The translations under genes were made by a program, and so were the position numbers. A stretch of DNA of 64,000 nucleotides from positions 1-64,000 of the IMG/VR virus record IMGVR_UViG_3300035698_035364. One strand, written 5' to 3'. Source of the DNA: a virus. The notes under the pieces are model-generated. The model ran no database searches and was not told the origin of the DNA. It worked only from the letters and a program-made list of their open reading frames with translations. Below are positions 22,447-62,414 of this stretch, piece by piece. The first letter of the stretch is position 1. Every line of letters begins with the position of its first letter.

Positions 22447-25400
22447 ATGGGAACAACCAGATATTATGGCCTAGCCTTTTTTGATTTTAGTGATCAGTTA
22501 GATACTTCGCTAAATATCCAAAAAGAAATAGATCGTTTTGTTGTTATAGATAAACAGTTGTATGGAATGTACAAAGTGTTTGGCAATGGAGTTATTGAGG
22601 GATGGAATGTTTTAGATGCTGGGTTCCGGGATGGGGAAGGTATCACTGTCTCTATCTCCGAAGGTATTGGTATTATTAAATATTTGGCGGCAGAAACTAA
22701 CCTGCCAGGAACTCTTACAGGACTGCCTCCTAATAGTTTAATAGATATATATGTTACTTTAACAGGAACTACTTTATTAGATCGGGTTGTTGATTTTACT
22801 GCTTCTACTAGTGATATTTCTGTAGAGTTCGCTATTAGGATCGCACAGGTGGCTACAGGGGCCAATAGCATCCTTTATATAGATAATACGGTGAGGGATT
22901 TAATTGGTTTTGACGAGATTATACAAGACGCAATAGATGAGCATAGACACAGAGGGACTCCATCAAAAATTGATTTAGAGGGTGAAGTAAAAAATCAGCT
23001 ACCTGGAGCCAGAGTTGCCGATATTGATGCTTCTAAAATTACTAGTGGGACGTTTGGTATTGATAGGATCCCGTTAATTGATCATAATAATTTAGAAAAC
23101 AATGGGTTGCTTACTCATGCTGCGTTAGACTCTTTTGTTAAGACACTTTCTCAGAATAATAGAGAATTGTTGGGAGAGATATCTAGCACCAATTTGCTTA
23201 AGACTATTATATTCCTAAAATATCTTTATTCTAATGTGGACGAACAATTTGTCAATGAGTTGGCGATAATACCTGGAATCTCTCCGGATAGCTTTATTGA
23301 TTTTGATGCTAGTACTGCCAATATTAGTTTGACGGACCAGTGCATAAGCGGGATCCCTGCTCAAACAGGGTTATTTACATCGGTTTATTGGAATAACACT
23401 TTTTCTTTCAACAATTATTATAGTGAAAGTAATACCGTTATAGCTGATGATACAGTATCGTTGGAGAGGTCTGGCCAAAATATAGAAGTAGTAATGGATT
23501 TCAGTGATGGTCAGATTGGATTCGAGCCAGAGTTAATTGTAGTGAATGATGCTATGCAAGCGGTAGTGAGAGTGGAAGATGGTAATTTCTTAGGTAGGAT
23601 GGGTGGTGGCGGCACTCTTAACTATTTCTACAGAAGAAATTTTGCACAGGGTAAAAACTGGGATGGAACATATGATGAATTGGTTATAAAAGTAAAAACC
23701 AATGAACAGTTACATAGCCCTGTATATATGTATGTAGTGAATGGCTCTAATATTGATACTAGTGATCCTAATTCGTATGGGACTGTTGAGGACAGTAATA
23801 TAGCAGGGACAAAAAAACCCGCTACTTCTTGGATTATATTACAACAAAATGAGTTTATGGGAGATCTTACGGAGAAAGTGTTTGATATATCTAATCTGGG
23901 TTTGACTGATGTTACTCAAATTACTATTTATACTACAGATGATTTTACTTTTGATATTGATGATATATATGTGAGAAGAACTAATTTGATAGCTGATAGT
24001 GGAACTATTAGGTATAGATATCAAACAGAAGCAGATGTAGTTTTTCATTCTGTATTCTATGATGCTACTTCCCCTGATGATACAGGGATTGCTATTAGAG
24101 TTAAATCTGCTAGTTCTACTAGTTTATTATCTAGAGCAGCTTATTCTTTGCCGTTGGTGTCTGGGGATGTTATAGCCTTTTCTGGCACAGCAGTAGAAAT
24201 AGAAGTTCTTATGACTACTAATACTGAGAAGACGTTATCTCCTGCTCTGACCAACCTGGAATTAAGAATGCTTGTGGACTCTAGTTTCACAGGGTTTACT
24301 ATTGATACGGATACTGAATGGATTAGAGGGACATTAAATAATATAGAGACGGAATCTGCTTCTGAGGTGGGATATGATAATATAGTTATTTCCACTCCGA
24401 TTAATGTAGGTGGAAGGTATTTTGCCAAAAGTAGTTCAGTGAGTGAGATTAATGATGCGAATATAGGTGTTTTTGGATTTAGCGGTAATTTAATGCCTAT
24501 TGCTCCTAATCAGGCCAGGAATTGGACTATTTCTTCTTCACGGGGATTTGATAAGGTCTCTTCAGTCGTGAGGAAGTATGACAAAAACTATTTGATTGCC
24601 GACATGAACAATAATAGAGTGTTGGAGGTTGATAGTGGAGGTAATTTTATTAAGGGATTAGGATCCACATATTCTATTGACACTAATTTCTATCCTTTGT
24701 CGGCGGTGTACAATGCTACTACCCAAATGTTAACTCTTGTTTTCACTAAAGCAGCGATTGTAAGTGATATTACTAAAATAGCTTTTTATATTGGATCATC
24801 TAAATTGTCTTTGACTACTGACGATACTATCCAGACTCAGGACAAGGCAGGTAGAAAAGTTTTGGAGATTTTACTAGACGATGATACTGCTGTTCAATTA
24901 GTAGGTGTTACTACTGATTTATCGGTGAATTTCGATAATGGGGCATTTACTGAGACGCTTAATGTGAGTGCGGGTATGACGGCGGAGGGGAATAGTATAT
25001 TCAGCACGTTAAGAGGCCTAACTTGTTTCATAGGTGATTTCACCTTTGTTGATAATATCCGTCATCCTGTTTTTGTAGGGGAAACTAGTCAGGATAATTG
25101 GGTTGTGGCTAATTCGTCTATATTTTTTGGGGGAGTAGCGACTGGGGAAGAAGAGACTACTGTTCCTGATATAGTGGAGATTGATCCAGATGATGTCAGT
25201 AATACAACTGATAAACTTATTTCGACGGATATAAAGTTTTCTGATTATTCATTAGGTGGTATTTATGAGTACGAGGATAATAGATTTTTAGTAAGTGGTA
25301 TTGCGTCTTCTAACACTACACTTTCAGGTATCTCTGGGGAAGATTTATTGAGTGCATATGCAGATAGAGTCGATAGTGAAGGGAACTCTATCCCTGTTCC

Positions 25401-25713: not shown

Positions 25714-25732
25714 ACAATAACAGAAGTAGTAT

Positions 25733-26830
25733 ATGAACAAAATAAAACTTAATTACGCAGCATTTATGAATCAAAGTGGGTATTCCCAGGCCGCACAAAA
25801 TTATATTTTGGCACTGGATAAGAGTGATAAATATGATATAAAATTAAGAATTTTTGGGGATAGGCCATCTAAACCCGCTATAAGCGACAAAAAGTATGAA
25901 CTTTTCATGAGCATGGTGAATAAGGATGATGATCCAGAAAGAATTTTAATATATCATTGTATTCCATATATACAGAAAAGAATAAAAGCGAAGGGGAGGA
26001 ATATAGGATTTGCTACTTTTGAGACGTTCAACCCTCCGGAAAAATGGATAGAAATCCTTAATTCTAATGATGCTATTATAGCTCCCTCTAAGTTTAATTA
26101 TAAGATTTTCTCTCATATGAAGATAAGAAAACCTATATTCTATTTACCCCATTGCATTGATATTAATGTGTATAATGCGGAAGTACAACCATTGAATAGT
26201 TACGATAGGTTTACGTTTTTGTTTATGGGTATTTGGAGGAAGAGGAAGGGATATAGGCAGTTGTTAGAGGCGTGGTTCAGAGAATTCACGGAGCAAGATC
26301 CAGTGCAACTGCTGATTAAGACAGATAAACCCAAACAAGCTCAGGGATATATTGACAAACTTAGGAAGGAAATGGGAATTAACAAAGGATTTGCCCCTAT
26401 TTTAATAGAAGATAAAATATTCGATGAAGAGACTTTGCCAAAGTTTATGAAGTCAGTGGATTGTTTGGTGTCTCCTACTATGGGAGAGGGATTTGGAGTG
26501 CCAGGGCTACAGTGTATGGCAATGGAAGTTCCCGTAATTATAACTAATTTTTCTGGCTGTCAGGATTATGCCAATGAAGAAACAGCAAATCTTCTAGAGC
26601 CAAATGGCTTTACTTTACAAAGCGATATGGATGGCATCCCTCAGTTCAGGAGTAAAAAATGGGCGTTTGTAGAGGTTAAGCAGATACAAAAGGTAATGAG
26701 ACGAGTATTGAGTCATCCTATGGAAGTAAAAACGAAGGCAAGAAAGGCATATACTTATGCCAGAGATAATTTTAATTATAATAGAATAGAAAATTTATTT
26801 TCTGAAATGGTAGAAGAGTTGTATGGCTAA
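25733..26830 (+). CDS. Glycosyltransferase family 4-like (GT-B) enzyme
   Basis: A 365-residue GT-B-type glycosyltransferase. 'FLFMGIWRKRKGYRQLLEAW' near 162-181 is the start of the C-terminal nucleotide-sugar domain. 'SPTMGEGFGVPGLQCMAM' near 247-264 is the donor-binding motif; family members usually have a second Glu (E-x7-E) where this protein has Gln, so activity or sugar choice may differ. The N-terminal domain begins 'NYAAFMNQSGYSQAAQNYI'. It overlaps the next gene by 8 bases, within a block of fibre genes, so virion proteins or a host surface glycan are plausible acceptors (inference). The leader contains CAGAAGT (25721), which might also serve as a weak ribosome-binding site. Confidence 0.88.
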   Translation: MNKIKLNYAAFMNQSGYSQAAQNYILALDKSDKYDIKLRIFGDRPSKPAISDKKYELFMSMVNKDDDPERILIYHCIPYIQKRIKAKGRNIGFATFETFNPPEKWIEILNSNDAIIAPSKFNYKIFSHMKIRKPIFYLPHCIDINVYNAEVQPLNSYDRFTFLFMGIWRKRKGYRQLLEAWFREFTEQDPVQLLIKTDKPKQAQGYIDKLRKEMGINKGFAPILIEDKIFDEETLPKFMKSVDCLVSPTMGEGFGVPGLQCMAMEVPVIITNFSGCQDYANEETANLLEPNGFTLQSDMDGIPQFRSKKWAFVEVKQIQKVMRRVLSHPMEVKTKARKAYTYARDNFNYNRIENLFSEMVEELYG

Positions 26831-29800
26831 GTTAATATTAAATCCTCAGTTTGGAACTATCAAAGATGCCAAATCTTTGAAATTCGAAGTGGATGGGCTT
26901 TCTCAAGGTAAATACAGCGTTAGAATAGAGAATGCCACTCATTCTGTGGATGGTGATGTAGATGGGTTTGAGGGGGTAGGAGGGGTAGTGAATCTTAACA
27001 TCCCTGAGGAGGCATCTCATTCTGCTATTTCTGTTTTTGCTCATATTCAGCAGAGGCAGGATGATGGCATATATAAAACTATTGAGATCTGCCCTACTAT
27101 TTTTAATGTTAAGGAAAAAGTTGGTAAAAAGTTTCCAGGTGATTTTAATATCAATCCTGTTTTTGCCAGCCCCAAAGATGTGTGTTCTATAAAAATTCAA
27201 TCTTCTTCTAATAGTAAGAGTATATTTTCTATTAATGATAAGAGATTCCCTGTGTTTACTGATGATAATGGGAATGGTTCTATCCATTTTAAGGGGAATG
27301 ATATCCTGGATAAGGATATAGGTTCGGTCCAAAAGTTTCCAGTTTATTTCTATACATCAGATGATAATTATGTAAGAAAGAATTTTTCCGGCTCGTCTCT
27401 GAGCATTCTACCTGAAGAAATCGCTATTCATCAAGAGGTTGATCCTAGATGTTTAGAGGCAGATTACTCTCCCGGATCTTGGACTATTCCTAATGAATGT
27501 TTAGAACAACCTGAGGTCACTATAGTAGTTCCTATTGCTCCGTATATTGATCCGTTAGGTATTCCTACTTCTTGTAAAGAGGGGAATATTACTATGGATG
27601 AAGTATGCCGTGTTTATAGTTCTTCAGCCACAATGTTACCTAATGGGGTTGTAATACATGCCTATACTAATTCTGATGTAGATGACGCTAATGATACTGA
27701 TGCTGAGGGATACAATAAGAATAAAGTATTTATCTCTAAGAATGAGAGCACATTGGATGTCCAGGCGATAACTAGAAGAGATGTTTCTATCGCCCCTAAA
27801 GAAAGAACTGAGAATTTTGAGATATATGTAGACCAAGATGTATATGAGGCGTTAGAAGGAGTGGCCGACATCTCTGCAAATGATATATTTGTAATTCTGT
27901 ATAACTCAACTATCGGATACCAACCAATAGAAATTATTGGAAGGGAGATGGACGACTATTTAGGTGACTACAAGTTAATTGGAGATGTAGGGGATACAAA
28001 TGTTAAGATAGATACTTGGCTATTTTGTGTGAATGCTGTGTTTTATCATGCTAATGAGGCTCCTAATATCGCATTTACCGCTACCGATACTGATACTATA
28101 TCTTTGCCGCATATTTTCAACCCCTCTGATAGCACTGAGATATTGCAGGTCTTGAATGTGTCAGTTACAGCTAATTCTAATTATGTTCGCAGATATGAGC
28201 CGGTTTATATTTATGTGGTGGCGGAAGTGTATCTGGGTGGCACGAATCAACTTTTTATGTATAATTTTAAATTAGATAAAAATACATATTTTGATAGCTC
28301 TGATACCTCAAAAGCATATGGATGGGTGCAATTAACATCGGTTGGGAATAATAAAAATCCTAAAATTAATATTGACTATGATGACACTTTACATGTGTTA
28401 TGGGAAAGTGATCGAAGCAATTCTAATCAGATATACTATGGAGTTTTAGGCAGCAATTATTTATCGTTAGGAAATACTACATTTTCATCTATGTTAGATA
28501 AAAATTCTGAGTCTTTAGAGCAGGAAAATAGATCGTTTACTGGTATATCTGCATCTTTATTAAGTAGGGTTATAGGAAGTGAATATGCTCCTATCCCAGA
28601 ATATGATACAGAAAGTTTAATTCCTGGATGGATGCTTCTGCAAAATGGTGGTGGGACGATATTGGAGACTGTAGGGAGTAAATATTTAGATGATCTATCT
28701 TTAACTGTTACTCCAGTTTCTCAGGGTGCTATAGCATTTGCTCAGTTGCAGATTGTTGCAAATGAGGATAATCAGCCAGAGAGTATGCCTGTGCCTTATC
28801 AGCAGTTTAATTATCAAATTGCTTTTAATATGGATGTAACGATTACTCAATCTAGTGATTTGATGATAGCATGGGATGGGACTGTTTTAGATAGTAAAGA
28901 GATAGATAATTTGTATAAAGAGTGGGAAATGGAGTATATAAGGGAGGTAAATGCGGAACTATCCAATACTCCTGTTTATGTTAAAGATTTTAATAGATTT
29001 ATCATAGGGAGAGATGATAGCATATATGATAAAATCATTCCGTTTGTAGGTGCTTATAATGGTAACAATCCTTCTATGGGTGATTTTCAGATCAACATAT
29101 TGAAGAATGATAATAATCTGAAAGATTTTACTTTTGGGCTAATGTTAGAAAAAACATATTTTAAGGCCACTAATATTCAGAGTGCTTTGGAATTTGCTGC
29201 AATTAATCCGGGGACTGGCAAGACATATGTTGCTGAAGAAGTGCATACTTTATATACGGGTAGGGCTAAATTAGTGGCGTTAGTTAAGACTGAAGACGTA
29301 AGCGATGACAGGTCTAATTATAAAGTAATCAAAGAGTTTCCAGAAGCTTTTAATATCACTATCCCTTCTAGTTATAAATTTGTAGTCACTTATACTAGTA
29401 TTGATTCTGGAGAAGTAAGGAATTTGTTGGGAAAAGAAGAAGGAGATTATCCTGGCCGATTTTTGGGAATGGTAACTTTACTAATAGGTGGAATAGAGAA
29501 ATTTTCTACTTCATTTATATCTAATCTTACTAATGACTATAACTATTTTGACATAGGTTTGGGAGTTCCGTCTGGGGGGTATTATACTGCTGATAATATG
29601 ATTCCTAGTGCAGTATCTCTCTATGATGATGTGTCTGTGAATATCCAATATAGTGATGTGACTATTACATCTCCTGAATACACTTACAATAGTGATATTT
29701 TAATGCTTCCTGATATAACTAAAGATATGACTAAGTTGAGGGTGGCATCTGAAAGTGATATTTCTGATCCTTCATGGATGTTCCCGACTTCTGAAATAGA

Positions 29801-30839
29801 CCCTTTGTTGAGTTTAGAATATAGAGCAGCCGCCAGAATATTATATACGCATAGTGATGGAGAAGAGTCAGGTTCCGGAAGAAGTTATGCTTATGATGTT
29901 AGTGATATAGATTTATTGACTGTAGACTTTGCTACTAAAAGTAGTACTGGGAAAATTACGATAGAGGATGCGGGAGGGGCATCTCTATATGATACGGGTT
30001 TTATCACTACTGGGACGGAAGAGGCAGTTTGTACTATTCTAGGAGGAGTTCATAACTGTATGTCATTTGATTTGGATGTGAGCCAATATGATAATATAAC
30101 TTTCACAGTGACAATGGCTAATTTTACTTCATCTTGGTATTTTGGGATAGAATTTAAAAAAGTGTATGCTACGACCAATTTTTTACAAATTCCTATTACT
30201 TTAGAAGGCATTAATCAATCTTTGGATGTGTCAAGGGGCATATGTAACGATGTGCATGTAGCGTGGCAATCTAATCAAAATAAATATTGGAACATTTATA
30301 ACACTAGTTCAGAAGATAAGTTGAGACCGTTTAGGTTTGATACTAGGATTACTAATACTGATAGTAATAGTATTGTGCCTGCTATTTCGGTTTGTAGGAA
30401 TGGAGCTAGGATGATCGTATGGCATGACAATAAAAATGGGGATTTTGATATATATGCGGCCAGATCCTTAGAAGGTTATACGTGTAACGAATCTAAATGT
30501 GCGACTAGGGAGTTGGCGAAGTATAATGAGCAAGTAACAGAAAGTACGTTATTGTTTAACCATACTGCTGCTACTGCGGGTACCCACGATTTTGCTATTT
30601 GGTTTTATACTGACAATGGTTTGTCAGATTGGTATAAAACTATTGCAATGTCAGATGGTGTCGAAGGATGGACTGTTAATGGGGTGGCTTTAGCAGATAT
30701 CGTGGTATACGATGGGACAGATATAGTAGGCATATTGCTAAGTTCGGGAGAAGAAGTAATAGTGGAATATACTCCAGATAAAAATGATGGTATTTTCGAT
30801 AGAGTTTTATATGTTACGTTAGTGGCAACGGTTAGTTAG
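26823..30839 (+). CDS. Large beta-rich appendage protein with propeller-type blades and C-terminal HFR-like domain
   Basis: A 1338-residue protein. Residues 1-95 and about 100-200 are immunoglobulin-like beta domains. Blades of the 'hVxWxxx....IYY' type occur near 523 (LHVLWESDRSNSNQIYYG), 1145 (VHVAWQSNQNKYWNIYN) and 1193 (MIVWHDNKNGDFDIYAA), typical of bacterial six- or seven-bladed propellers. The last 100 residues ('TESTLLFNHT', 'HDFAIWFYTDNG', 'GWTVNGVAL', 'EVIVEYTPD') are a copy of a domain also seen in the genes at 30848 and 39303. Cys pairs near 210-230 and 1220-1230 could form disulfides. Start ATG overlaps the glycosyltransferase stop. Probably a tail appendage adhesin; receptor unknown. 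Confidence 0.6.
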   Translation: MAKLILNPQFGTIKDAKSLKFEVDGLSQGKYSVRIENATHSVDGDVDGFEGVGGVVNLNIPEEASHSAISVFAHIQQRQDDGIYKTIEICPTIFNVKEKVGKKFPGDFNINPVFASPKDVCSIKIQSSSNSKSIFSINDKRFPVFTDDNGNGSIHFKGNDILDKDIGSVQKFPVYFYTSDDNYVRKNFSGSSLSILPEEIAIHQEVDPRCLEADYSPGSWTIPNECLEQPEVTIVVPIAPYIDPLGIPTSCKEGNITMDEVCRVYSSSATMLPNGVVIHAYTNSDVDDANDTDAEGYNKNKVFISKNESTLDVQAITRRDVSIAPKERTENFEIYVDQDVYEALEGVADISANDIFVILYNSTIGYQPIEIIGREMDDYLGDYKLIGDVGDTNVKIDTWLFCVNAVFYHANEAPNIAFTATDTDTISLPHIFNPSDSTEILQVLNVSVTANSNYVRRYEPVYIYVVAEVYLGGTNQLFMYNFKLDKNTYFDSSDTSKAYGWVQLTSVGNNKNPKINIDYDDTLHVLWESDRSNSNQIYYGVLGSNYLSLGNTTFSSMLDKNSESLEQENRSFTGISASLLSRVIGSEYAPIPEYDTESLIPGWMLLQNGGGTILETVGSKYLDDLSLTVTPVSQGAIAFAQLQIVANEDNQPESMPVPYQQFNYQIAFNMDVTITQSSDLMIAWDGTVLDSKEIDNLYKEWEMEYIREVNAELSNTPVYVKDFNRFIIGRDDSIYDKIIPFVGAYNGNNPSMGDFQINILKNDNNLKDFTFGLMLEKTYFKATNIQSALEFAAINPGTGKTYVAEEVHTLYTGRAKLVALVKTEDVSDDRSNYKVIKEFPEAFNITIPSSYKFVVTYTSIDSGEVRNLLGKEEGDYPGRFLGMVTLLIGGIEKFSTSFISNLTNDYNYFDIGLGVPSGGYYTADNMIPSAVSLYDDVSVNIQYSDVTITSPEYTYNSDILMLPDITKDMTKLRVASESDISDPSWMFPTSEIDPLLSLEYRAAARILYTHSDGEESGSGRSYAYDVSDIDLLTVDFATKSSTGKITIEDAGGASLYDTGFITTGTEEAVCTILGGVHNCMSFDLDVSQYDNITFTVTMANFTSSWYFGIEFKKVYATTNFLQIPITLEGINQSLDVSRGICNDVHVAWQSNQNKYWNIYNTSSEDKLRPFRFDTRITNTDSNSIVPAISVCRNGARMIVWHDNKNGDFDIYAARSLEGYTCNESKCATRELAKYNEQVTESTLLFNHTAATAGTHDFAIWFYTDNGLSDWYKTIAMSDGVEGWTVNGVALADIVVYDGTDIVGILLSSGEEVIVEYTPDKNDGIFDRVLYVTLVATVS

Positions 30840-30847
30840 GATCAGGT

Positions 30848-33616: not shown

Positions 33617-35184
33617 TGGCTAATATTTTTGATATTTTATCTGATGCTCCTACTTTGGAATACCCAAATGGAGGAGAAGTTTTTGCAGATGGGATAATCA
33701 CTATTCAATGGAGAGAACCTTCTGTAATTCGTGGCAATCACTTAGTATGGTACGAGATTTTTATAGCTGAATCTTATGATAATAGCAAAAAACTTGAATG
33801 GGTGCAGGTTGCTAATATCCCGTCTGGAAACAGTTCTTTTGTTTATAACATACATAAGAATATAAAAGGGAATAAATGTAGAGTAGGTATTCAGGCCGTT
33901 CTTCATACAGGTCAAAGAAGTGAGTTGTCGGTTTCAGCGGATAATTTTAGTATTATCAATAAAAAGTTACCTAATCCTGCGTTGTTAGAACCGTCTCCAT
34001 CGGAAACATACTTCTCTTATATCCCGTTTGTTTTTGATCATGGAGCTATCCTGGGAAGATGTTCTCAGAGATCTTTTTATCAGATTTATTATAGCTCTGT
34101 GAGTCAGAATATAGATTGGACGTTAGTAAGAGGAGATATAATGGTTGGTTCAGATCCAATCAATATAGATGTGAGTAATTTTGCCACTGCTACCGATTAT
34201 CTATTAAAAGTTGAATTAGTAGATGGCGATAACGTCTCTGAGCCGGTGTTTATTAATGATATTACTATTAATAATATTAACTATTTTTTGATAGATACTC
34301 TGCCTCCTAAAGGGCTAATCACGGTTCAGAATAATACAGAATATACAAAGGAGAGAGATTTAATAGTTAATCTGGAGGCATTTGATGCCACTACTGCTGT
34401 GCAAAATTACAGGATAGAACAAATGAATATTCGGCCTGCGGGGAATACGGTCGAGACAGGTTCTTATTCTGGGATGACTAATTTGGCTACATGGTATATT
34501 GTAGGGGAAACCGTTGGAGAAGAAGAATATGTAGATGGAGTCAAACTTATACAGGCAAAGTATAGAGACTATGCTGGTAATGTGGTGGCAGAGGGGGATG
34601 GAGAATATTTTAGGACATATAAGAGTAGGGATAACGAAGAGGTTACGGCATTTTTATATAACAATGGTGATTTGTGGATCGCTTTTGGAAGCCAAAATTT
34701 AAGTGTTGACAATCCACAGATATATAAGAACCAAACTCTCATTTCTACTTTAGATGGTGATGCCACTAGTTTAGTGATGTTTAATAACGTTTTATATATA
34801 GCTATTAAAGATGATGAGAATAAAGGTATATTACAAAGGTATTCGGGAGGGGTAGTTGAATCGGTTCGTGATAATGAAGAACAATACACTGATACAGAGG
34901 AGACAACGTTGAATGTGTTGTATAAAACTGATTCAGTTATTAATACGATGGAGGTTTTTGATAGTAAGTTATTTTTGGGTCTTCAGAATGGAGATCTATT
35001 GAGCTTTACTGGATCTGTCGTATCTACTGAAAATAGTTCTTATGAGGATAGGAGGAGTATCAATTATATTAGGACTGATGGGAACATGTTGTATATATTT
35101 TTTGAGAATACTACAGAAATAATGGTAATGACCAAAGATGCTAGTAGTAATTATACTTTTTCTACAATCGATACAGGAAGTTAA
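33616..35184 (+). CDS. Appendage protein: PNGGE Ig/FN3-like domains plus C-terminal propeller
   Basis: A 522-residue protein. 'EYPNGGEVFADGIITIQWR' (about 15-33) is the entry strand of a common extracellular Ig-like module. FN3-like domains cover about 10-115 and 118-225, and an 'IDTLPPKGLITV' linker leads to a further Ig-like domain to about 330. Residues 335-522 have short repeated strands ending in 'LWIAFG', 'LYIAIKD', 'LFLGLQN' and 'LYIFFEN', a small beta-propeller like the one in the 39303 protein near 1150-1250. ATG overlaps the previous stop. No catalytic signature. Confidence 0.6.
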   Translation: MANIFDILSDAPTLEYPNGGEVFADGIITIQWREPSVIRGNHLVWYEIFIAESYDNSKKLEWVQVANIPSGNSSFVYNIHKNIKGNKCRVGIQAVLHTGQRSELSVSADNFSIINKKLPNPALLEPSPSETYFSYIPFVFDHGAILGRCSQRSFYQIYYSSVSQNIDWTLVRGDIMVGSDPINIDVSNFATATDYLLKVELVDGDNVSEPVFINDITINNINYFLIDTLPPKGLITVQNNTEYTKERDLIVNLEAFDATTAVQNYRIEQMNIRPAGNTVETGSYSGMTNLATWYIVGETVGEEEYVDGVKLIQAKYRDYAGNVVAEGDGEYFRTYKSRDNEEVTAFLYNNGDLWIAFGSQNLSVDNPQIYKNQTLISTLDGDATSLVMFNNVLYIAIKDDENKGILQRYSGGVVESVRDNEEQYTDTEETTLNVLYKTDSVINTMEVFDSKLFLGLQNGDLLSFTGSVVSTENSSYEDRRSINYIRTDGNMLYIFFENTTEIMVMTKDASSNYTFSTIDTGS

Positions 35185-35185
35185 G

Positions 35186-36196: not shown

Positions 36197-36198
36197 TT

Positions 36199-37182: not shown

Positions 37183-37184
37183 GT

Positions 37185-39284: not shown

Positions 39285-39302
39285 TTTTGGTAAATAAGAA
39301 AA

Positions 39303-51187: not shown

Positions 51188-51197
51188 GATTAGATAA

Positions 51198-53168: not shown

Positions 53169-53179
53169 GGACATGAGTA

Positions 53180-56100
53180 ATGTCGATTAATTTAATTGAA
53201 TATTATAAAGCAGCTAACACTGAGTCATCTCTTGCAGCCGGTGTATGGAATATTAATTACGATAAGAGGCATTTATTCAAAGTTTCTAGTGATTATGACG
53301 CTGTGAATGAACATTTGGAAATAATTTCTTTACCACCTTCTAATGAGGCTACAAGTAATGTTAGTATTTTTTCTGGCCAGTTAGATCAGAAGCTCGACAA
53401 TACTAAGATTACATCGTTAAGTGCTAGGGCAGAAAAAGTAGAGCTAGACTTAGATGATAGGATAGTAACTGTTATTATTGATCAAAGTGGTAGTATGACA
53501 TGGAATGATAATGGAAATTATCGACATCAGTTAGCAAAGAATTTGGTTGATAAGATAGAGTTTAATTATCCAGGAACTGTAAATTATAATCTGATTAAAT
53601 ATGACTCTGCATTAGCTAGTATGTTGTTTTTTGGTCTTATTGAGCAAGAAGGCTTAGATATATATGACTTCAACAGTTTGGCTAAATTAATGTTGGCCGA
53701 TGAAAATGCTAATTTTGCTGGTATAAGGGTCATTAGGAATGCAAATCGTTATCCAACTTCTATTGTTGATGGAGAGTTAGTCTCAGATGGGTTTATCAGT
53801 GCAATATTTAATACAGATTTAACTGAAAATAGCACCTATTATTATACTGTTTATACATATGATAATGACTTAAAATTCAGTGAAGGGGCAAGAATAAAGG
53901 TCACTCCTAGAACAAGGAATGTGCCTAGAGGTATTTTCTTATTTAATACTGTAGTCGATTCAGATGATTTGAGCAAGGGCAATCCTTTTGTGGGGAAGGG
54001 TGTTAATAACGATGATAATGTTACAGGGTTGTGGCATTTTAATGAAGGGGAAGGGCAGAACTTATATGATTTTAGTGGATCCGATGTTATACTAACTATT
54101 GATGATCTTTATCCTACATGGTATGACCAAATTTTTACTCCTGCTGGTGACTCTGCTTTGTTTTTTGATGGAGATACAGACAGAGCGTACTATTCTGATA
54201 CCGGCAACGATTTAAGGTTGTTTCATAATGATGATAATAATCAAATAACTATTATGGGGTGGATATTCCCTTATGATCTAGAAGACTCTGCTATTGTAAC
54301 AAGAGAAAGTGCTGGTGGGGGTGAGATTAACTATACCTTAGGTATTCAGTCTGGCCAGTTGGCATTTCATAATGGAAGGAATTCTACTACTACTAGTTTA
54401 TCTTTAACAGCACATAAATGGCAGCATGTGGCAGTGACTTACAACATAGATGCTGAGCAAATTACGTTTTATATTAATGGTGTAGCCCAATCTCGTAATT
54501 GGATAGGAGATGCTTCTGTCCCTGACTCTACAGACAGTATGGAATTTGTTGTTGGACTGTCTAACTCTTCCTTCTTTTCGGTTCCGTATAGAGGGAAGAT
54601 AACAGAGCTTAGTATCCATAATACTGTTAGATCTTCGGAATATATTAATGCACAGATTATAGATGCTACTATTTATGGAGATAATAGTCTAGCGATAGAT
54701 ACTGAAGCGACTGGGTTGAAGGATGATAATGGAGATCGATTAGTTGTTTTGAAATATGAGATTCCTTTAGATTACAATTTCGCTGGTGGTGAAGTTGTAA
54801 TAGTAAGAAACACTGAAAGAATACCTACATGGGAGGAAGATGGGGACATTATCCATCAGCAAGTTCCATCAGCGGGGCAGAATTATGTAATTGATTCTGA
54901 TGATTTTGTTTTTGGGGAAAAATATTATTATAGAATATATTCTAAAAATTCTTTGGGGAACTCTAGTTTTTCTTCGGACTCTCCTTCTTTAGAAGTAACT
55001 ATACCTACCTCACCGACAACAGATTATTTTCTATCTTTAGGTGAAACATTAGCTTCTCCTGAATCTCCTTTGAATAATTTACCTTTAATTACTCCAGGTA
55101 ATACCAAAGTATTTTTAAGATGGAAAAATGTTGCTCCAATAGACTCTAGGATACAGAGAGTCAGAGTATATTATTCTTCTATTGGATACCCTACTGTTGA
55201 TAGTAGTGGTGGGTCAAATAGTCAATTAGTATTTTCTGGATTGCCAACAGATGAAAAGTTTGTTCATAGAGATCTAGTTAATGGATCCAATGCCTACTAT
55301 ACAATAGTTAATGTAGATAAGTATGGTAGGGCTTCTAATTATGACGCTGATGGTGACCAGGTAGAAGATTTTTTACAAGCTGCAACTGTCCCCTCTGCTA
55401 CTGCTGATGAAAGTATAATTCCTCTACTAGATGTAGAGAACTTACATTATGAGTTGATAGATGGTAACTCTGTTAGCGTCAAATGGGATATGCCAACGAA
55501 AAACCCTGAAAATATTGAGGCATATTTCGATCAGACTATTATTATTTATGCTTCTATTACTGATGAGTTTGGGCAAGCAATATCTGACGACGCTTTGACT
55601 AAAATGTATATTAGTGCCTCTATCTCTCAGGAAGAACAGGCAGAGGATGTTTTTGGAGCAGCGGATACAATAGATTTTGTAGATGTGGACTCTTATACTT
55701 TCTTTGTTTCTAAGACTAGTGATGGTATTATAAAAGCAGTTTTAAAGATGTCGTCTAATCCTTCTATCATGTCTCAGATTAAAGGAGCATCTTTTACTAT
55801 ACAAGTTAAAACCTATATTCCTAAGGAAGGCTATGTGGCTCCTGATGTCACAACTGCATCTACGACAGGATTAGAAGAGTATGCCACTTTAATTGAGACA
55901 CTAGCCGGGGGAGAGCAACAGGCATCGACAACATCATCTTCTGATAATGTGTTTGAATATTTTTCAAAACCGTTAACTGTGAATTTCACTAATCCATGGG
56001 AAGTTGAGTTAGAGAGTAGAGATAATCAAACAGTTGATCAAAGATGTTATATCCAAAAAGTAGATTCGGTTACTGGCAATACTCAGTTGCAGGTAGTTAG

Positions 56101-59100
56101 GGAACACTTTGATGGTGTCTATATGAAGGCATCTGCTCCTTTTGTAGCTAGGGCCAAATTAAAATACAAAGGAGAGCCTATTGACGCAGGTTCTATACAG
56201 ATAGCGGTTTGGGATGCTGAGTTTGATAATCTTTGTGCTAATGCTGGTTCTCCCGGATCGGGTGGATTTGAGGGGCCAAAAATACAGGTTAGCTCAACTG
56301 TTTTACCTCCTGATAATAGAATGGATATTTTGCAGGGGACAGAGCAGGGGTTGGGGAGCGACGGATTGTCCACCGACATACCTATTTCTTATGTTGATAT
56401 CCCTTTGTATGCTCCTGATATGCCTCATGCAGTTAGATTGTTTGTTAAGGGAACTAAATCAGGATATTCTTCTGTTAAAAATATGTATGTTTTATTCCAG
56501 AGTATTTTACGGATGGATATACAAACTGATAGTCCAGTGGTGGATGGCCATGATGTATCCGAACAACAAGCTAATGCTTTTTTGATTAACCCTGATTTTC
56601 CTAATTATGAGGTTAATGATTCAGATAAGTCTTTAATCACTTACCCTACTGACAATACGGTAGTTCAATGGTCTATTGAGAGATTAGTAGGAGATATAGA
56701 TAGAACTATTTATTCTATTGATAATGTTCCTATTGCTAATGGAGTTTATTCTTATACTAGAAATGGGCTTGCCAGGAATGTATTTTTAGGGCCTATACAG
56801 AAACCAGATAAAGAGATAAATGAGACACATGAAATTAAAGCAGTAATCGTTTATAACGGGCTAACTGCTGTAGCACGACAATTTGTAAAACTTAAGTTTA
56901 ATCCACGCGAATATGATAAGTTCGGTGCTAAATTTTTAATGGAAATGGATGGAGGATGGAGAGGAATAGGAGATACCTTATCTTGGAGAGGATCGGGATG
57001 GTTAACAGCAGGTACATATCCTTTATGGGCAGATGGAACTGACTACAAGCGTGTTAAAATAGCTCGCGACCCTCAGAACGTCATTGACTCCGAGTTTGGT
57101 GCGGGGCCTTGTTTTAGAACATGTGCTACTCAAGATGGTTCTCAGGTGTTTGAATTAAATTCAGGTCAAGTGGTCCATATCCAGAGTGAAGATCCTGATA
57201 TAGAAATATTGCATGGAGAAATATACGAAGATTTAGATCCTTATACTGGCACTTATACTCTCAGGCAAGGGGAAGATGGATTCTCAGATAATGGGGAGGC
57301 ATTTGTATCTTTAAACAGCGAGACGGAATCTGATATCACTTATTTTTATATTAGGGCTAATAAATTCACTCCAACTTCGGGTCAGAGATGGCATACTAAT
57401 TGTGACAAGGCAGAAGCTATTAACGAGTGTAAATGTTTGGGGTCGAATCCTAATATTGGCTTGACTGATTGTGACACTCCAGGATGGACCCCTGTTATAT
57501 ACTTATCTGGCTCAACTACTTTATTTGTGGATGATCAGCCTCTAGTATTAACTGGAGGTGGTGATTTTGAAACAGGAGTGCCACCTTGTCCTGTGTGTTT
57601 AAAAGAGCCTTTAACTACTTCTACTATTTCTCGCACTATAACTGATTATTATTACAGAGAGAATCTTATTAATCCGTCTCTATCGGGTATGACTGGAGTT
57701 ACCTCTGAAGTCGATAATAATAATTTCTTAGGGCCAAATGGCGATGATGCCCTTATCCGATATACAACAGATATAGATATTAGAATGAAAGTATTATGGA
57801 GAGGGTCTGCTGTTCCAGATAATACTCCGGTGTATATCTCTATTGGCAATAATGACGGCAATACATTTTTTGTGGCAAGTAGGAATATATATTATACTCA
57901 GACTGATGAAACAACTGTTCCTCCTCATAGCTACGTAGATATTAGGATAGGCACTAGAAAGCCTCCTACTGCGAGGGTCACTGAGTTGGTATACGCTTAT
58001 ACTAATTATGATGAAAATGGGCAGACTACTAGAGAAGTTGGAGAAAGATACTCACTAACTTTAGATCATACTGATATCCCTAAAGATATTGTTGTTAGGG
58101 AAGAAGAGCAAGAGCCTGAGGTTCCTCCTACTACTCCTGAACCAACTGCATTTTCAGCTACTATAGAAAGATATAATATACTGTCTAATGAGTGGGACAC
58201 TGTTAGTTCGATGCAGGATGGCAGAGGAAATCTATTTGCCGGTGTAGTTAATGATACGATATATGCGATGGGAGGGTTAAAGAATAATAGCCTTGATCTA
58301 TCATCTAGAAATGAGATTTATGACCCTGTAGATGATGTATGGTCAGATGGGGCCATAATGCCTACTCCTAGAATGGCTGGTGCTGCTGTAACTATAGGTA
58401 ATGATATTTACACAATAGGAGGAATAGGAGTAGATGATGTGATAGGGAATGGAGGATTCAATGTGGATTCAACCGTAGAAGTATATCATACTGATACGGG
58501 TACATGGGAGACTCTAGCATCTATGCCAATCATCAATGAAGGAGGAGTTTATGAGGAGAAGTTGGGAGTTGCTTTTGGAACTGCTCAGCATATCGTAATA
58601 GCAGAGGGAAGTTTAGAAAGAGACTATATCTATATCTTAAGTGGAATTAATACTGTTAATTACACTGGTGAATTATTTTTGGCCGAGAAATATAATGAGA
58701 GAGTATTACGATACTCTGTGCAAGATGATGCATGGGAATATTCTGAAGTTTTAAGAAGTGATGAGTTAGTCGCTTATCAAAGAGTAGCACCTTTGTCGTT
58801 GGCATACAACGATAGGATTGTTGTGTTTAATGGAGCAATAGAAACTGAAGGGGCATTTATTTATCCTAAAGAAGATTTTAGTGTTACTATAGAGGAGGAT
58901 TTTGCTAAGTCTGTGGGGGCTGAATGGTTGCAATTTGGCAGTGGATATTTAGAAGATTTCCCAGAGCCAAAATTCCAAGCATCTCTAGTGAGATATGATT
59001 TAAATCCTTCTACCGATCATTCCGATTATTATATTTTCGGAGGGTATAACAAAGAGTCGCAAAATCTAGATATTGTAGAAAGGTTAACTACTCATGTGTC

Positions 59101-59299
59101 TGAGTTCGTGTATGAAAGTAGCTATGAAGGCAATCCATCTGCAAGATTAGCATCGTTGATATCTTCTAAGCATGGCATGTCGGCTGTTTTGTGTAATGCT
59201 CCTGATGGCTCTTTAGGAGATTTCCCTTATGTCTATTTAATAGGAGGATATGTGACAGCCAGGGATAATAACTATGTAGATATTGGTTTTGATATATAA
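53180..59299 (+). CDS. Giant appendage protein: vWFA N-half, FN3, LamG and Kelch propeller
   Basis: A 2039-residue protein, the longest here. Residues about 94-150 carry the first half of a vWFA domain, with MIDAS motif DQSGS at 101-105, but the sequence then passes into an FN3-like unit ('GIRVIRNANRYPTS', 'YYYTVYTYDND') without the later MIDAS Thr and Asp. Residues about 270-495 are LamG ('GLWHFNEGEG', 'WQHVAVTYNIDAEQITFYIN'). Two or more FN3 units follow (about 510-730). The centre is beta-rich, with a Cys cluster near 1410-1475. Residues about 1660-1990 are Kelch repeats ('YNILSNEWDTVSSM', 'TIYAMGG', 'YDPVDDVWSDGAIMPTPR', 'DIYTIGG'). Start ATG is 8 bases after AGGGA; a nearby ATG at 53173 is out of frame. 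Role: receptor-binding appendage. Confidence 0.7.
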   Translation: MSINLIEYYKAANTESSLAAGVWNINYDKRHLFKVSSDYDAVNEHLEIISLPPSNEATSNVSIFSGQLDQKLDNTKITSLSARAEKVELDLDDRIVTVIIDQSGSMTWNDNGNYRHQLAKNLVDKIEFNYPGTVNYNLIKYDSALASMLFFGLIEQEGLDIYDFNSLAKLMLADENANFAGIRVIRNANRYPTSIVDGELVSDGFISAIFNTDLTENSTYYYTVYTYDNDLKFSEGARIKVTPRTRNVPRGIFLFNTVVDSDDLSKGNPFVGKGVNNDDNVTGLWHFNEGEGQNLYDFSGSDVILTIDDLYPTWYDQIFTPAGDSALFFDGDTDRAYYSDTGNDLRLFHNDDNNQITIMGWIFPYDLEDSAIVTRESAGGGEINYTLGIQSGQLAFHNGRNSTTTSLSLTAHKWQHVAVTYNIDAEQITFYINGVAQSRNWIGDASVPDSTDSMEFVVGLSNSSFFSVPYRGKITELSIHNTVRSSEYINAQIIDATIYGDNSLAIDTEATGLKDDNGDRLVVLKYEIPLDYNFAGGEVVIVRNTERIPTWEEDGDIIHQQVPSAGQNYVIDSDDFVFGEKYYYRIYSKNSLGNSSFSSDSPSLEVTIPTSPTTDYFLSLGETLASPESPLNNLPLITPGNTKVFLRWKNVAPIDSRIQRVRVYYSSIGYPTVDSSGGSNSQLVFSGLPTDEKFVHRDLVNGSNAYYTIVNVDKYGRASNYDADGDQVEDFLQAATVPSATADESIIPLLDVENLHYELIDGNSVSVKWDMPTKNPENIEAYFDQTIIIYASITDEFGQAISDDALTKMYISASISQEEQAEDVFGAADTIDFVDVDSYTFFVSKTSDGIIKAVLKMSSNPSIMSQIKGASFTIQVKTYIPKEGYVAPDVTTASTTGLEEYATLIETLAGGEQQASTTSSSDNVFEYFSKPLTVNFTNPWEVELESRDNQTVDQRCYIQKVDSVTGNTQLQVVREHFDGVYMKASAPFVARAKLKYKGEPIDAGSIQIAVWDAEFDNLCANAGSPGSGGFEGPKIQVSSTVLPPDNRMDILQGTEQGLGSDGLSTDIPISYVDIPLYAPDMPHAVRLFVKGTKSGYSSVKNMYVLFQSILRMDIQTDSPVVDGHDVSEQQANAFLINPDFPNYEVNDSDKSLITYPTDNTVVQWSIERLVGDIDRTIYSIDNVPIANGVYSYTRNGLARNVFLGPIQKPDKEINETHEIKAVIVYNGLTAVARQFVKLKFNPREYDKFGAKFLMEMDGGWRGIGDTLSWRGSGWLTAGTYPLWADGTDYKRVKIARDPQNVIDSEFGAGPCFRTCATQDGSQVFELNSGQVVHIQSEDPDIEILHGEIYEDLDPYTGTYTLRQGEDGFSDNGEAFVSLNSETESDITYFYIRANKFTPTSGQRWHTNCDKAEAINECKCLGSNPNIGLTDCDTPGWTPVIYLSGSTTLFVDDQPLVLTGGGDFETGVPPCPVCLKEPLTTSTISRTITDYYYRENLINPSLSGMTGVTSEVDNNNFLGPNGDDALIRYTTDIDIRMKVLWRGSAVPDNTPVYISIGNNDGNTFFVASRNIYYTQTDETTVPPHSYVDIRIGTRKPPTARVTELVYAYTNYDENGQTTREVGERYSLTLDHTDIPKDIVVREEEQEPEVPPTTPEPTAFSATIERYNILSNEWDTVSSMQDGRGNLFAGVVNDTIYAMGGLKNNSLDLSSRNEIYDPVDDVWSDGAIMPTPRMAGAAVTIGNDIYTIGGIGVDDVIGNGGFNVDSTVEVYHTDTGTWETLASMPIINEGGVYEEKLGVAFGTAQHIVIAEGSLERDYIYILSGINTVNYTGELFLAEKYNERVLRYSVQDDAWEYSEVLRSDELVAYQRVAPLSLAYNDRIVVFNGAIETEGAFIYPKEDFSVTIEEDFAKSVGAEWLQFGSGYLEDFPEPKFQASLVRYDLNPSTDHSDYYIFGGYNKESQNLDIVERLTTHVSEFVYESSYEGNPSARLASLISSKHGMSAVLCNAPDGSLGDFPYVYLIGGYVTARDNNYVDIGFDI

Positions 59300-59300
59300 T

Positions 59301-59486
59301 ATGGCTAATGAATATAAAATAATTAAATGCAAGTTAGATGGTAAGCAGTCGGTATCTGTCCCTATTGATATTAAGCAGAATGGGAGATATGTCGAAGAGA
59401 GGGTTAATGTACAAGTACAAGGATTTTTGAAGTTCAGTGAAACTGCTGCTCAAGAATCTCAGGTGAATGATAAGACTGCTATTTAA
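59301..59486 (+). CDS. Small 61-residue protein, in frame with the next gene across a TAA
   Basis: An unrecognised 61-residue beta-rich protein (MANEYKIIKCKLDGKQS...), starting one base after the preceding stop; a start 18 bases upstream is also in frame but falls inside the giant gene. Its TAA (59484-59486) is followed after only CCA by a GTG that opens the next, large reading frame in the same frame. It may be a separate small protein, or the N-terminus of the 59490 protein cut off by a stop codon. Confidence 0.5.
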   Translation: MANEYKIIKCKLDGKQSVSVPIDIKQNGRYVEERVNVQVQGFLKFSETAAQESQVNDKTAI

Positions 59487-59489
59487 CCA

Positions 59490-62414
59490 GTGCTGTTTAC
59501 TTCCAATCAAGTTGCAGTTAGTGGTGGTCGAGTGGTTATTACTTTGCTCCCTCGATCTGAGGATTTTTTCACAGATAGCAGCACATTAGCTGCCAGAGAT
59601 CCTGTTCAAATGGCTAATGTTGTTTCTCAGGGAGGTATTAGTGCTGATGAGCAAATAACCCAACCGACAAAGGAACCTGTATTTATTAGAATAGAAACAG
59701 GGCAAATCCGTAATCCATATAAGATTTCTATTGGGGTATCTATTACTCCGGAGAGTGCCGGTGGGCCTGAAGGTCAGACTGTTGATAGGGGAACGGATCC
59801 GGAGATAGAAGTGCAAGAAGATGTGAACTCTTTATTCCAGAAAGAAAAAAGTAGAGCAGCAAGTAATTTAGTTATTGATTGTTATAATGATGATGATTGG
59901 ATCCCGGTGGTGGAAACTATTCTAGGAGACAATAACGGAACACGATCACAAATAAATCAGGAGTTGGATGATATGGCCAATTCTACTCCTTTTGGTGCTT
60001 CTACGATGTATGATGCTGTAGTAAAAGGAGCCAGGTTATTATCTGATACTGCTTTAGATGGAACAAGGAAGTTAATATATTTGCTTACGGATAATGAAAC
60101 AGCCGCTTCTCTGGCCACGGTGGATCAATCTTTGGAAGAGGTTAATGCTATTGATGGGGATAAAGAAGTCCCTATCTTAATAGCTAATATGGCTATTGTA
60201 GATCCTCAAACATTATCAGTAAAGATCAATAGTTCTGATACAAGGGATATTAATAAGTTAGCGTTTCTAACTGATGGGCAAAGTGTGACTGTTGATAGCG
60301 AGAGTTATTTAAATGATGTGACTGCTATATTCTATCATGAGGCAGCAGGATCATTAGGATATGGTACTTACGAATTTACAATGGATCTGGGAGAAGAAGT
60401 ATTAGTCAATTATATAACGGCTTATTTTGATGTGGTCTCAGACAATTCTAATGCTACGTGGTCTATTGAAACAAGCACAGATGGATATAATTTTACAGTC
60501 ATAGATGCTACTAATGATTATGATGAGACTGTTGATTATAATGAATTATTTGCTAGATATATTAAGTTTAAAATTATATTAGTTACTGGTTTTAATACAG
60601 TGGAAGACGAATATGGGGCATATCCTGAATCTCCTGCTTTGACTTCTGTGGTTGTTGTATATAACACGTCTAAAGTAGCATACTTATATCTGAATAAAGA
60701 AGAGGAGGAGATTCCCCCTTACCAAATGACGTTAGCGGTGAATGCCAATGAAATTAATGAGGATCAAATAAAAATTGGTGTGGCCAAATCTGATTCCCAT
60801 AATTGGAGTGATTTTTCTACAGATTCTCAACCGTCTGTTAGCCAGAATGGTAAGGTTGTTATCCCAATAAGATTTTCTCAAGATATTACGGAGTTTCAAC
60901 AAGAGCCTTTGAAAAAGGTCAATAACCATATTTTAAAGACGGAGTATGGCAGTTGGGATTCTTATGCTACTGTGTTGTTATATGATGATAATGATGAGGT
61001 TATTCCTACTACCTATTATGTGCTGCAACCAAGAGAAGGGATAGTGGTTTTTAACTATGCTTTGCCAAATGCTTATGTCGATGGGGATTATAAAATTGGT
61101 GTTTTGAATGGCACTAATTATAAGGTTGGTTTGAAACTTACTAATAAAACGGAAGCTGCTACGTTGGATATTTATGGGGTAGGTTATCTTTACACAACTG
61201 GTAGAAATTTACTTCCTCCACTCTCTAAAGCGTTGCCTGAAGTAAGAAGTGCTATTATCACTAATGAAGATCCAAATAGATTTAGCCCAATAACAATCTC
61301 ATATATCTATTTTGATGCTAATTTTGATCAAGAAGTAACAGCGTCTCGTATAATCAGGTGGTTCATTAATGGGAAGCAAATTACTTACCTGGATAATTTG
61401 ATTAGTTGGAATGATATCGATGACCCTCAAGATCCTTTGTATGAAAATACTTCTTTGTCTTATCCTAACACAGAAGACCTGGATGGAGACACTATAGATG
61501 AATGGGCCAGGAAACAAACTGATTCTATTTTGCAGCCAGGAGATAAACTTCATTTTGAAATACAGGTTAGTGATGGAGAATTTTTAAGTCTAACAGGGAA
61601 ATCTAATATAGTTGAAGTGGCTGAGTCTGTGCCAGTGTTGGATGGGATATTTGTAAAAGCGAAAGATGAAAATAATAATATCATTGATAGATTGGCCACT
61701 GATAACCAAGCAGTGATATATCCTTCTATTGATACTATATTCCATTCTGACGGATCTGATAATGCATCAGAGATAGTGTGGTATGTAAATGATGAGGTAT
61801 TTAAGAGAGGGACATATGGGCAGGAAGTTCTTACTGGTCAACCTCCTATCCATGAAATATGGATCAATGAAATAGGTCAAGTGAATTACTTAGATTATGG
61901 TTTAAGAATATCTAATGCTATTTTTGTTCAGGTTACTCCTAGAACTTCTTCATCAGTAGGGACTCCCGTGACAAGTCCGGTAGTGGTTGTAGAGAATGCT
62001 TTGCCTAGAATTTTTAATGTGAATTATGCTACTACTAGTTATGTAGCAGGTAGAGACTTGGTTTTGGTGTGGGACTTCTTTGATTTTGAGATTAATGAGA
62101 TAGGCAGTTTAGATACAACTAGTCAAACAGATCAAACTAGTGTTAAATGGTTTAGGAAGAATCCTGGGGGGATCTTTGAAGAGGTGTATGTATATAACGA
62201 TCATACTACAACTACTTTGGATGAGGTATTTAATGATACAGATTATCAGGGGCATATATCCACTAATTTAGGCACTCATGCTTCTACTGTCGATGGTAAT
62301 GTTATAGTGACAGGGCAACAATGGTATGCTCAGATAATACCTCACGATAGTTTAGATGAAGGAGCAATTGTTACTAGTGAGATTATTACCGTTACTGCTA
62401 GTAGCAATGTATAA
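59490..62414 (+). CDS. Appendage protein: vWFA C-half, discoidin-like and Ig-like repeats
   Basis: A 974-residue protein if it starts at GTG 59490, which has no ribosome-binding site; reinitiation after the TAA three bases upstream is possible. Residues about 110-280 hold the second half of a vWFA fold: helix KEKSRAASNLV, then 'GASTMYDAV' with Thr172 and 'IYLLTDNE' with Asp201, the MIDAS positions missing from the 53180 protein. No DxSxS is present. Residues about 285-400 are discoidin/F5-8C-like ('YEFTMDLGEEVLVNYITAYF', 'WSIETSTDGYNFTVI', 'ARYIKFKI'). Three Ig-like units have 'RIIRWFINGKQ' (near 620), 'EIVWYVNDEVF' (near 761) and 'SVKWFRKN' (near 884), related to the 37185 protein. It ends in a TAATG overlap with the GT2 gene. 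Confidence 0.65.
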   Translation: MLFTSNQVAVSGGRVVITLLPRSEDFFTDSSTLAARDPVQMANVVSQGGISADEQITQPTKEPVFIRIETGQIRNPYKISIGVSITPESAGGPEGQTVDRGTDPEIEVQEDVNSLFQKEKSRAASNLVIDCYNDDDWIPVVETILGDNNGTRSQINQELDDMANSTPFGASTMYDAVVKGARLLSDTALDGTRKLIYLLTDNETAASLATVDQSLEEVNAIDGDKEVPILIANMAIVDPQTLSVKINSSDTRDINKLAFLTDGQSVTVDSESYLNDVTAIFYHEAAGSLGYGTYEFTMDLGEEVLVNYITAYFDVVSDNSNATWSIETSTDGYNFTVIDATNDYDETVDYNELFARYIKFKIILVTGFNTVEDEYGAYPESPALTSVVVVYNTSKVAYLYLNKEEEEIPPYQMTLAVNANEINEDQIKIGVAKSDSHNWSDFSTDSQPSVSQNGKVVIPIRFSQDITEFQQEPLKKVNNHILKTEYGSWDSYATVLLYDDNDEVIPTTYYVLQPREGIVVFNYALPNAYVDGDYKIGVLNGTNYKVGLKLTNKTEAATLDIYGVGYLYTTGRNLLPPLSKALPEVRSAIITNEDPNRFSPITISYIYFDANFDQEVTASRIIRWFINGKQITYLDNLISWNDIDDPQDPLYENTSLSYPNTEDLDGDTIDEWARKQTDSILQPGDKLHFEIQVSDGEFLSLTGKSNIVEVAESVPVLDGIFVKAKDENNNIIDRLATDNQAVIYPSIDTIFHSDGSDNASEIVWYVNDEVFKRGTYGQEVLTGQPPIHEIWINEIGQVNYLDYGLRISNAIFVQVTPRTSSSVGTPVTSPVVVVENALPRIFNVNYATTSYVAGRDLVLVWDFFDFEINEIGSLDTTSQTDQTSVKWFRKNPGGIFEEVYVYNDHTTTTLDEVFNDTDYQGHISTNLGTHASTVDGNVIVTGQQWYAQIIPHDSLDEGAIVTSEIITVTASSNV

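What the first reader, a model, noticed from the sequence alone, without database searches (positions are those of the whole stretch)
22447..62414. About 40 kb of modular adhesins, one of the largest appendage arrays expected for a tailed phage
Thirteen genes totalling about 12,900 residues contain at least five beta-propeller classes (NHL-like, VxW type, Reg_prop-like, Asp-box, FG-GAP, Kelch), FN3 and Ig-like arrays, LamG, discoidin-like and InlB-type repeats. No depolymerase or lysin motif was recognised. The tail tip may be a large multi-ligand adhesive structure, for a variable host surface or for attachment to mucus, matrix or particles.
Basis: partly seen in the sequence, partly recalled or inferred. 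Interest (0 to 1): 0.65.

Follow-up and report, generated by a model that had tools for sequence, protein, structure and literature searches.

The report
Conserved giant adhesive phage tail tip
A little-known lineage of very large bacterial viruses spends about 41,000 bases on one fixed set of roughly a dozen giant, sugar- and surface-binding type proteins that sit behind the tail genes, and changes only a few plug-in binding domains at their front ends, which suggests a very elaborate, long-lived attachment device rather than a constantly reshuffled one.

Summary
In detail: window 22447-62414 is one tightly packed, co-directional run of large ORFs, 12 non-enzymatic proteins totalling 12,860 residues, with kelch, FG-GAP, NHL-like, Reg_prop and Asp-box propeller motifs, FN3, Ig-like, LamG, InlB-type and discoidin-like domains. 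Corrections: 25733-26830 is a GT4 glycosyltransferase; 59283 and 59490 are one gene interrupted by an in-frame TAA; the run follows tube, tape measure and hub-position genes.

New: six IMG/VR relatives (88-548 kb) share the array. Where contigs allow, it is collinear in all, 12.8-13.7 thousand residues each, with near-constant lengths at 31-66% identity to the window. It is at least as conserved as the replication genes, so 'for a variable host surface' fits poorly. The largest variation is at N-termini: the FG-GAP propeller of gp51198 is LamG in two relatives, another domain in a third, and N-terminal modules are added on three other proteins.

Best reading: a fixed, probably non-contractile tail-tip complex with a few exchangeable N-terminal binding heads. 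A GT inside every array covered, plus NeuB and many GTs in the four large relatives, makes virion or host-surface glycosylation a serious addition. Virion location is inferred, not shown; no enzyme was found, but both AF2 models failed.

The parts
653..1699 (+). volactin-type actin homologue at the head of the tail module
   Evidence: PF25216 E=1.8e-61; 67-79% identical in three relatives, same place
6889..8013 (+). tail tube protein
   Evidence: PF18906 E=4e-12, phrog_290 tail E=2e-15
9413..14590 (+). tape measure protein (1725 aa)
   Evidence: position between tube/chaperone-like genes and distal genes, helical plus hydrophobic sequence; homologues of 1125, 1188 and 5139 aa in relatives
14603..18721 (+). 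distal tail protein, unassigned
   Evidence: no Pfam/PHROG hit; homologues in four relatives at the same place
18726..22187 (+). hub-position protein, C-terminal third most conserved
   Evidence: position; 53-61% mean pairwise identity over residues 800-1153; no PDB match
22447..25713 (+). array protein 1: N-terminal module shared with 45275, C-terminal NHL-like propeller
   Evidence: length 1073-1088 aa in six genomes
25733..26830 (+). GT4 glycosyltransferase inside the array
   Evidence: PF13692 E=1e-16; 365-366 aa and 60% mean identity in six genomes, always at this place
26823..30839 (+). array protein 2: VxW-type blades and C-terminal 'HFRV' Ig-like domain
30848..33616 (+). array protein 3: InlB-type repeats, HFRV Ig-like domain; N-terminus extended by about 200-310 aa in four relatives
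   Evidence: PF18998 E=3e-11
33616..35184 (+). array protein 4: FN3/Ig-like then propeller-like; LamG added at its N-terminus in G002
35186..36196 (+). array protein 5 (336 aa; ORF listed from 35138)
   Evidence: weak phrog tail fiber match E=2.5e-4; start by homology
36199..37182 (+). array protein 6: LamG/ConA-like lectin
   Evidence: PF13385 E=1e-11
37185..39284 (+). array protein 7: Ig-like repeats, LamG-like C-terminus by eye
   Evidence: PF25788 E=1e-9; Ig domain shared with 59490
39303..45272 (+). array protein 8: VxW propeller, Reg_prop propeller, two HFRV Ig domains; N-terminal additions of 220-480 aa in three relatives
   Evidence: PF07494 E=2e-7
45275..51187 (+). array protein 9: shared N-terminal module, FN3 array, Asp-box propeller(s)
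   Evidence: PF00041 E=1.5e-15, 5 stretches; Asp-box motifs
51198..53168 (+). array protein 10: exchangeable N-terminal FG-GAP propeller (about residues 1-365) on a conserved C-terminal base
   Evidence: PF14312 E=1e-44; exchange seen
53180..59299 (+). array protein 11: weak VWA-like N-terminus, LamG, FN3, kelch
   Evidence: kelch structures E=8e-27
59283..62414 (+). array protein 12: one gene split by an in-frame TAA at 59484 (ORFs 59283-59486 and 59490-62414); VWA-like, discoidin-like, Ig-like
   Evidence: same frame, single ORF in six relatives; F5_F8_type_C and VWA_2 in relatives
62414..63142 (+). GT2 glycosyltransferase closing the array
   Evidence: PF00535 E=8e-14; present in all six relatives after the array

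Best explanation
The array encodes the distal tail complex of a lineage of huge, probably non-contractile-tailed phages: about twelve large virion proteins (about 13,000 residues in all) built from lectin-like and propeller domains, assembled on the hub at the tail tip. Most of it is a fixed scaffold and binding surface inherited vertically. Host tuning happens by exchanging or adding a binding module (FG-GAP propeller, LamG, others) at the N-terminus of a few of the proteins (gp51198, gp30848, gp33616, gp39303), whose C-terminal parts are the conserved ones and so probably the side that joins the virion. Shown: domain content, order, conservation, N-terminal exchange. Inferred: virion location, tip assembly, ligand binding, and the orientation of the exchangeable heads.
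For: Position directly after tube, tape measure and hub-position genes. No signal peptide or membrane span in any member. Whole module collinear in G001, G002, G003, G005 and G006, and in the part of it that the G004 contig holds. Array total 12,833-13,656 aa in the six genomes with the full array. Against G001, array ORFs have median identity 52% versus 45% for downstream genes, 14 of 14 in order, while only 38 of 56 downstream ORFs have a homologue. Large indels: of six blocks of 40 aa or more, four lie at N-termini and these include the largest. FG-GAP in G000, G002, G003, G005 versus LamG in G004 and G006 versus another domain in G001 on the same conserved C-terminal base. FG-GAP repeats occur in annotated virion structural proteins of cyanophages S-TIM5, S-TIM61 and S-TIM66. 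The analogous distal tail region of Bacillus phage 0305phi8-36 holds FN3 and VWA domains and is read there as baseplate/fibre genes (PMC2147016).
Against: No proteomics, microscopy or isolate. No Pfam/PHROG family ties most members to tails. Both AlphaFold models were useless (mean pLDDT 30-32), so no fold was tested. gp22447 and gp45275 have a shared, conserved N-terminal module, so the orientation idea does not apply to every member. N-terminal exchange could also reflect where recombination is tolerated rather than where receptors bind. G005 and G006 are fragments, and G001 lacks the genes before the hub.
Confidence: 0.72

Rival explanations
1. Self-decoration: the glycosyltransferases in and beside the array, fed by phage-encoded nonulosonic-acid and other sugar genes, glycosylate the array proteins (or the virion in general), so part of the array serves as a glycan-coated surface for shielding or for lectin-type attachment. 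Compatible with the best explanation as an added layer.
For: GT4 gp25733 lies inside the array in all six genomes where this part is present, with fixed length (365-366 aa) and the highest mean identity of the array genes; GT2 gp62414 closes it in all seven; G001-G004 carry 8-10 GT2 and 2-3 NeuB each; sugar-nucleotide and cytidylyltransferase genes in G001. Mycobacteriophage virions are known to be glycosylated (cited in PMC12619734).
Against: Phage GTs also modify DNA or host surface glycans; no acceptor is known; gene neighbourhood is the only link.
Confidence: 0.35
2. The glycosyltransferases and NeuB genes remodel the host envelope (superinfection exclusion or release from receptors) and have nothing to do with the adhesins beside them.
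For: Known role of prophage GTs (PMC12619734 text); sugar-nucleotide enzymes as well as GTs in G001.
Against: Does not explain why one GT is kept inside the tail operon in all six genomes that cover it.
Confidence: 0.35
3. One reading: a fast-evolving multi-ligand adhesin locus for a variable host surface or for mucus and particles.
For: Domain repertoire; N-terminal module exchange in four proteins.
Against: Lengths, order and identity are as constant as in core genes.
Confidence: 0.15
4. Secreted or host-surface proteins made by the phage rather than virion parts.
For: Domains typical of bacterial surface proteins.
Against: No signal peptides or membrane spans; locked to the tail operon.
Confidence: 0.05

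Closest known systems
Bacillus thuringiensis phage 0305phi8-36 distal baseplate/fibre genes (downstream of orf151; PMC2147016)
   Same: Large phage; FN3 arrays and a VWA domain in genes downstream of the hub; gene order kept between relatives
   Different: Contractile tail with curly fibres; its orfs 162-164 are hyperplastic with extensive domain substitution, whereas here nearly all members are fixed; no GT inside reported in the section read; direct sequence comparison not possible (record not held)
Sinorhizobium phage Phosso giant FG-GAP-containing genes (PV764938)
   Same: Huge phage with two adjacent proteins of 3,692 and 3,162 aa carrying FG-GAP-like repeats, with a minor tail gene about 12 kb away
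   Different: Two giant genes rather than twelve; only the FG-GAP repeat is shared (30% identity)
Cyanophage S-TIM5 FG-GAP virion protein
   Same: FG-GAP_2 repeats in a gene annotated as virion structural
   Different: Single 1.2 kb gene, no array
Moraphages (PMC12619734)
   Same: Jumbo phages with several core glycosyltransferases
   Different: Tail sheath is a shared gene there; none found here; sequences not compared directly

Membership tests
Tailed phage (Caudoviricetes) tail module | tail tube and tape measure genes next to the array | tested here: met
   PF18906 and phrog_290; tape measure by position and homologues
Tailed phage (Caudoviricetes) tail module | terminase, portal and capsid genes in the genome | tested here: inconclusive
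   PF03237 not found in G000-G006; other terminase, portal and capsid families not searched for by name; head-tail adaptor match at 4326 E=1.5e-5
Siphovirus-type (non-contractile) tail | no tail sheath gene | tested here: inconclusive
   PF04984 absent from all seven records including the 548 kb one; divergent sheaths would be missed
Jumbo/huge phage | genome over 200 kb | tested here: met
   Met for relatives G001-G004 (219-548 kb); the window's own record is 103 kb and looks incomplete
0305phi8-36-like phages | sequence homology of tail genes | tested here: inconclusive
   No match of 18726 or 45275 in 50,697 phage records, but that phage's record is not held under the two accessions tried
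Volactin-bearing megaphages LR756511 and LR745208 | homologues of 18726 and of the array | tested here: not met
   Volactin only 27-29% identical; 18726 and 45275 not found in either
Tail-spike depolymerase | polysaccharide-degrading enzyme domain | tested here: not met
   None by Pfam, PHROGs or PDB sequence search; a novel enzyme fold is not excluded

The most novel reading that the evidence does not exclude
A huge-phage lineage has evolved one frozen, about 13,000-residue adhesive tail-tip machine that it decorates with glycans made by its own nonulosonic-acid and glycosyltransferase genes, with host range set only by exchangeable N-terminal heads (reverse of the usual fibre polarity), while tail length varies freely (tape measure 1,125-5,139 aa).
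Probability: 0.25. Interest if true: 0.8.

Novelty: new variant of a known kind. Interest (0 to 1): 0.58.

Why it matters
It shows that a very large adhesive tail apparatus can be a conserved lineage trait rather than a mosaic, points to a small set of N-terminal domains as the likely host-range determinants, and links such an apparatus genetically to phage-encoded glycan synthesis. It gives a defined set of relatives on which virion glycosylation and host prediction can be tested.

Tried and rejected
PDB profile searches for 18726, 26823, 39303, 45275 and 59490 gave nothing, or only chance-level hits such as legumain E=0.07. Host search through IF-3 in genome contigs found nothing, and through 39303 only propeller-region matches in Bacteroidota at 24-29%, judged domain-level and not host evidence. 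Pattern searches with 18726, 53180 and 22447 found no relatives or only G001; the polymerase profile was what opened the lineage. tblastn of 53180 gave only kelch-region hits in one Paenibacillus and one Leptospira phage. Reference records of 0305phi8-36 are not held. The idea that the whole array is a hypervariable adhesin locus was rejected.

Full report
Setting. The window is bases 1-64000 of a linear IMG/VR virus record of 102,984 bp. Reading left to right: a volactin-type actin homologue at 653 (E=2e-61), a head-tail adaptor-like gene at 4326, a tail tube gene at 6889, small chaperone-position genes, a 1725-aa tape measure at 9413, two large unassigned distal genes at 14603 and 18726, then the array, then replication genes.

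Observation. They are co-directional and packed with gaps of -17 to +19 bp. Twelve large proteins sum to 12,860 aa. Pfam supports FG-GAP, kelch, LamG, FN3, Reg_prop, InlB-type and Ig-like domains. NHL-like and kelch propellers are also matched by solved structures. Asp-box and VxW blades rest on motif counts. The discoidin-like domain of 59490 is supported, below Pfam's cut-off, through a relative. Two corrections matter: 25733 is a GT4 glycosyltransferase, and 59283 plus 59490 are one gene with an in-frame TAA at 59484; the gene is a single ORF in all six relatives.

Relatives. Protein patterns from the array alone found only one relative, G001 (219 kb), which had first come through the polymerase. 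A two-row profile of the N-terminal part of the DNA polymerase III alpha subunit then found five more: G002 (351 kb), G003 (548 kb), G004 (298 kb), G005 (88 kb) and G006 (107 kb). Every one carries array genes. After fetching these regions, each window gene from the tail tube to the closing GT2 was matched to its counterpart: the order of the tail and array genes is the same in every contig. G001 begins at the hub-position gene, G005 just before it, and G004 inside gp51198, so missing genes there are contig ends.

Constancy. Lengths hardly change: 1073-1088 aa for gp22447, 365-366 for the GT, 329-336 for gp35186, 692-701 for gp37185, 1905-1970 for gp45275. The array totals 12,833-13,656 aa in the six genomes that hold it in full. 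Against G001, array ORFs have median identity 52%, downstream genes 45% with only 38 of 56 having a homologue (Mann-Whitney p=0.06, so 'at least as conserved', not 'more conserved'). Identity is spread along the proteins rather than falling off toward one end, except as described next.

Where it does vary. Of six insertion or deletion blocks of 40 aa or more, four are N-terminal and these include the largest. gp51198 has a conserved C-terminal base of about 290 aa; in front of it sits an FG-GAP propeller in G000, G002, G003 and G005, a LamG domain in G004 and G006, and an unrelated domain with a serine-rich linker in G001. LamG is added at the N-terminus of gp33616 and gp39303 in G002; gp39303 gains about 480 and 260 N-terminal residues in G005 and G006; gp30848 gains about 200-310 in four relatives. 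This is the pattern expected of exchangeable binding heads. For these four proteins it puts the variable end at the N-terminus, opposite to the usual fibre layout known to me from other phages (own knowledge); the orientation on the virion is an inference. gp22447 and gp45275 do not follow it: they share a conserved N-terminal module of about 80 residues.

Function. Position, collinearity with the tail genes and absence of export signals make virion proteins by far the likeliest reading. FG-GAP repeats occur in proteins annotated as virion structural in cyanophages. The nearest described layout is the distal tail region of phage 0305phi8-36 with FN3 and VWA domains, whose authors call its orfs 162-164 hyperplastic and a host-recognition candidate (PMC2147016). 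By that criterion, only the four N-termini here are hyperplastic. No tail sheath family was found in any record, which favours a non-contractile tail but does not prove it.

Glycan side. The GT4 inside the array has the highest mean identity among the array genes (60%) and its place is fixed. All seven records have GT2 genes, 8-10 in the four large ones, and those four also carry 2-3 NeuB genes; G001 has further sugar-nucleotide, cytidylyltransferase, APS kinase, acyl carrier and acyl transferase genes. Whether the product decorates the array, other virion parts, DNA or the host envelope is open; I give virion decoration about one in three.

Limits. No isolate, no proteomics, no host. The two structure predictions were made with two-row alignments before the relatives were known and failed. 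'One of the largest' was not ranked; Phosso shows that very large tail-region proteins exist elsewhere. Sequence-level searches found no enzyme in the array apart from the GT, but new enzyme folds would escape them.

Noticed in passing
G003 (IMGVR_UViG_3300033145_003233) C1:486468-501887; window 9413-14590: Tape measure length differs widely between relatives: 1125 aa (G002), 1188 (G006), 1725 (window), 5139 (G003), while the tip array stays constant. 5139 aa is about the size of the 5,002-residue tape measure of Thermus phage P23-45 (PMC10770324); no RNA polymerase DxDGD motif seen.
   Followed up: partly
window 653-1699: Volactin-type actin homologue is the most conserved gene of the tail module (67-79% in three relatives), always at its head; distant copies (27-29%) in two other megaphages. 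The H. volcanii volactin paper does not mention phages.
   Followed up: partly
window 59484-59486: In-frame TAA splits an array gene that is whole in all six relatives: sequencing error, real break or readthrough undecided.
   Followed up: partly
G001 C1:8812-9230: The homologue of 26823 is broken by a frameshift in G001 only.
   Followed up: partly
G001 C1:89879-136823, also 82661, 150502 and 191186: Large sugar/glycan gene cluster in a phage: two NeuB, cytidylyltransferases, GDP-mannose dehydratase-type genes, many GTs, APS kinase, plus acyl carrier protein and acyl transferase genes elsewhere.
   Followed up: partly
G000 71478-71987 and 78182-79165: By eye, genes resembling translation initiation factor IF-3 and ribose-phosphate pyrophosphokinase; both kept in G001 (40% and 62%). 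Not tested by profile.
   Followed up: no
G000 95660-98626 and 84431-88022; G001 68674-71152: By eye, an intein-like insert in a UvrD-type helicase and a DNA polymerase III alpha split over two ORFs, with a further break or insert in the G001 copy.
   Followed up: no
window 3623-4345; G001 C1:6718-7698: Related HNH homing-type endonucleases (51% identical) sit at different places, in G001 between array protein 1 and the GT4.
   Followed up: no
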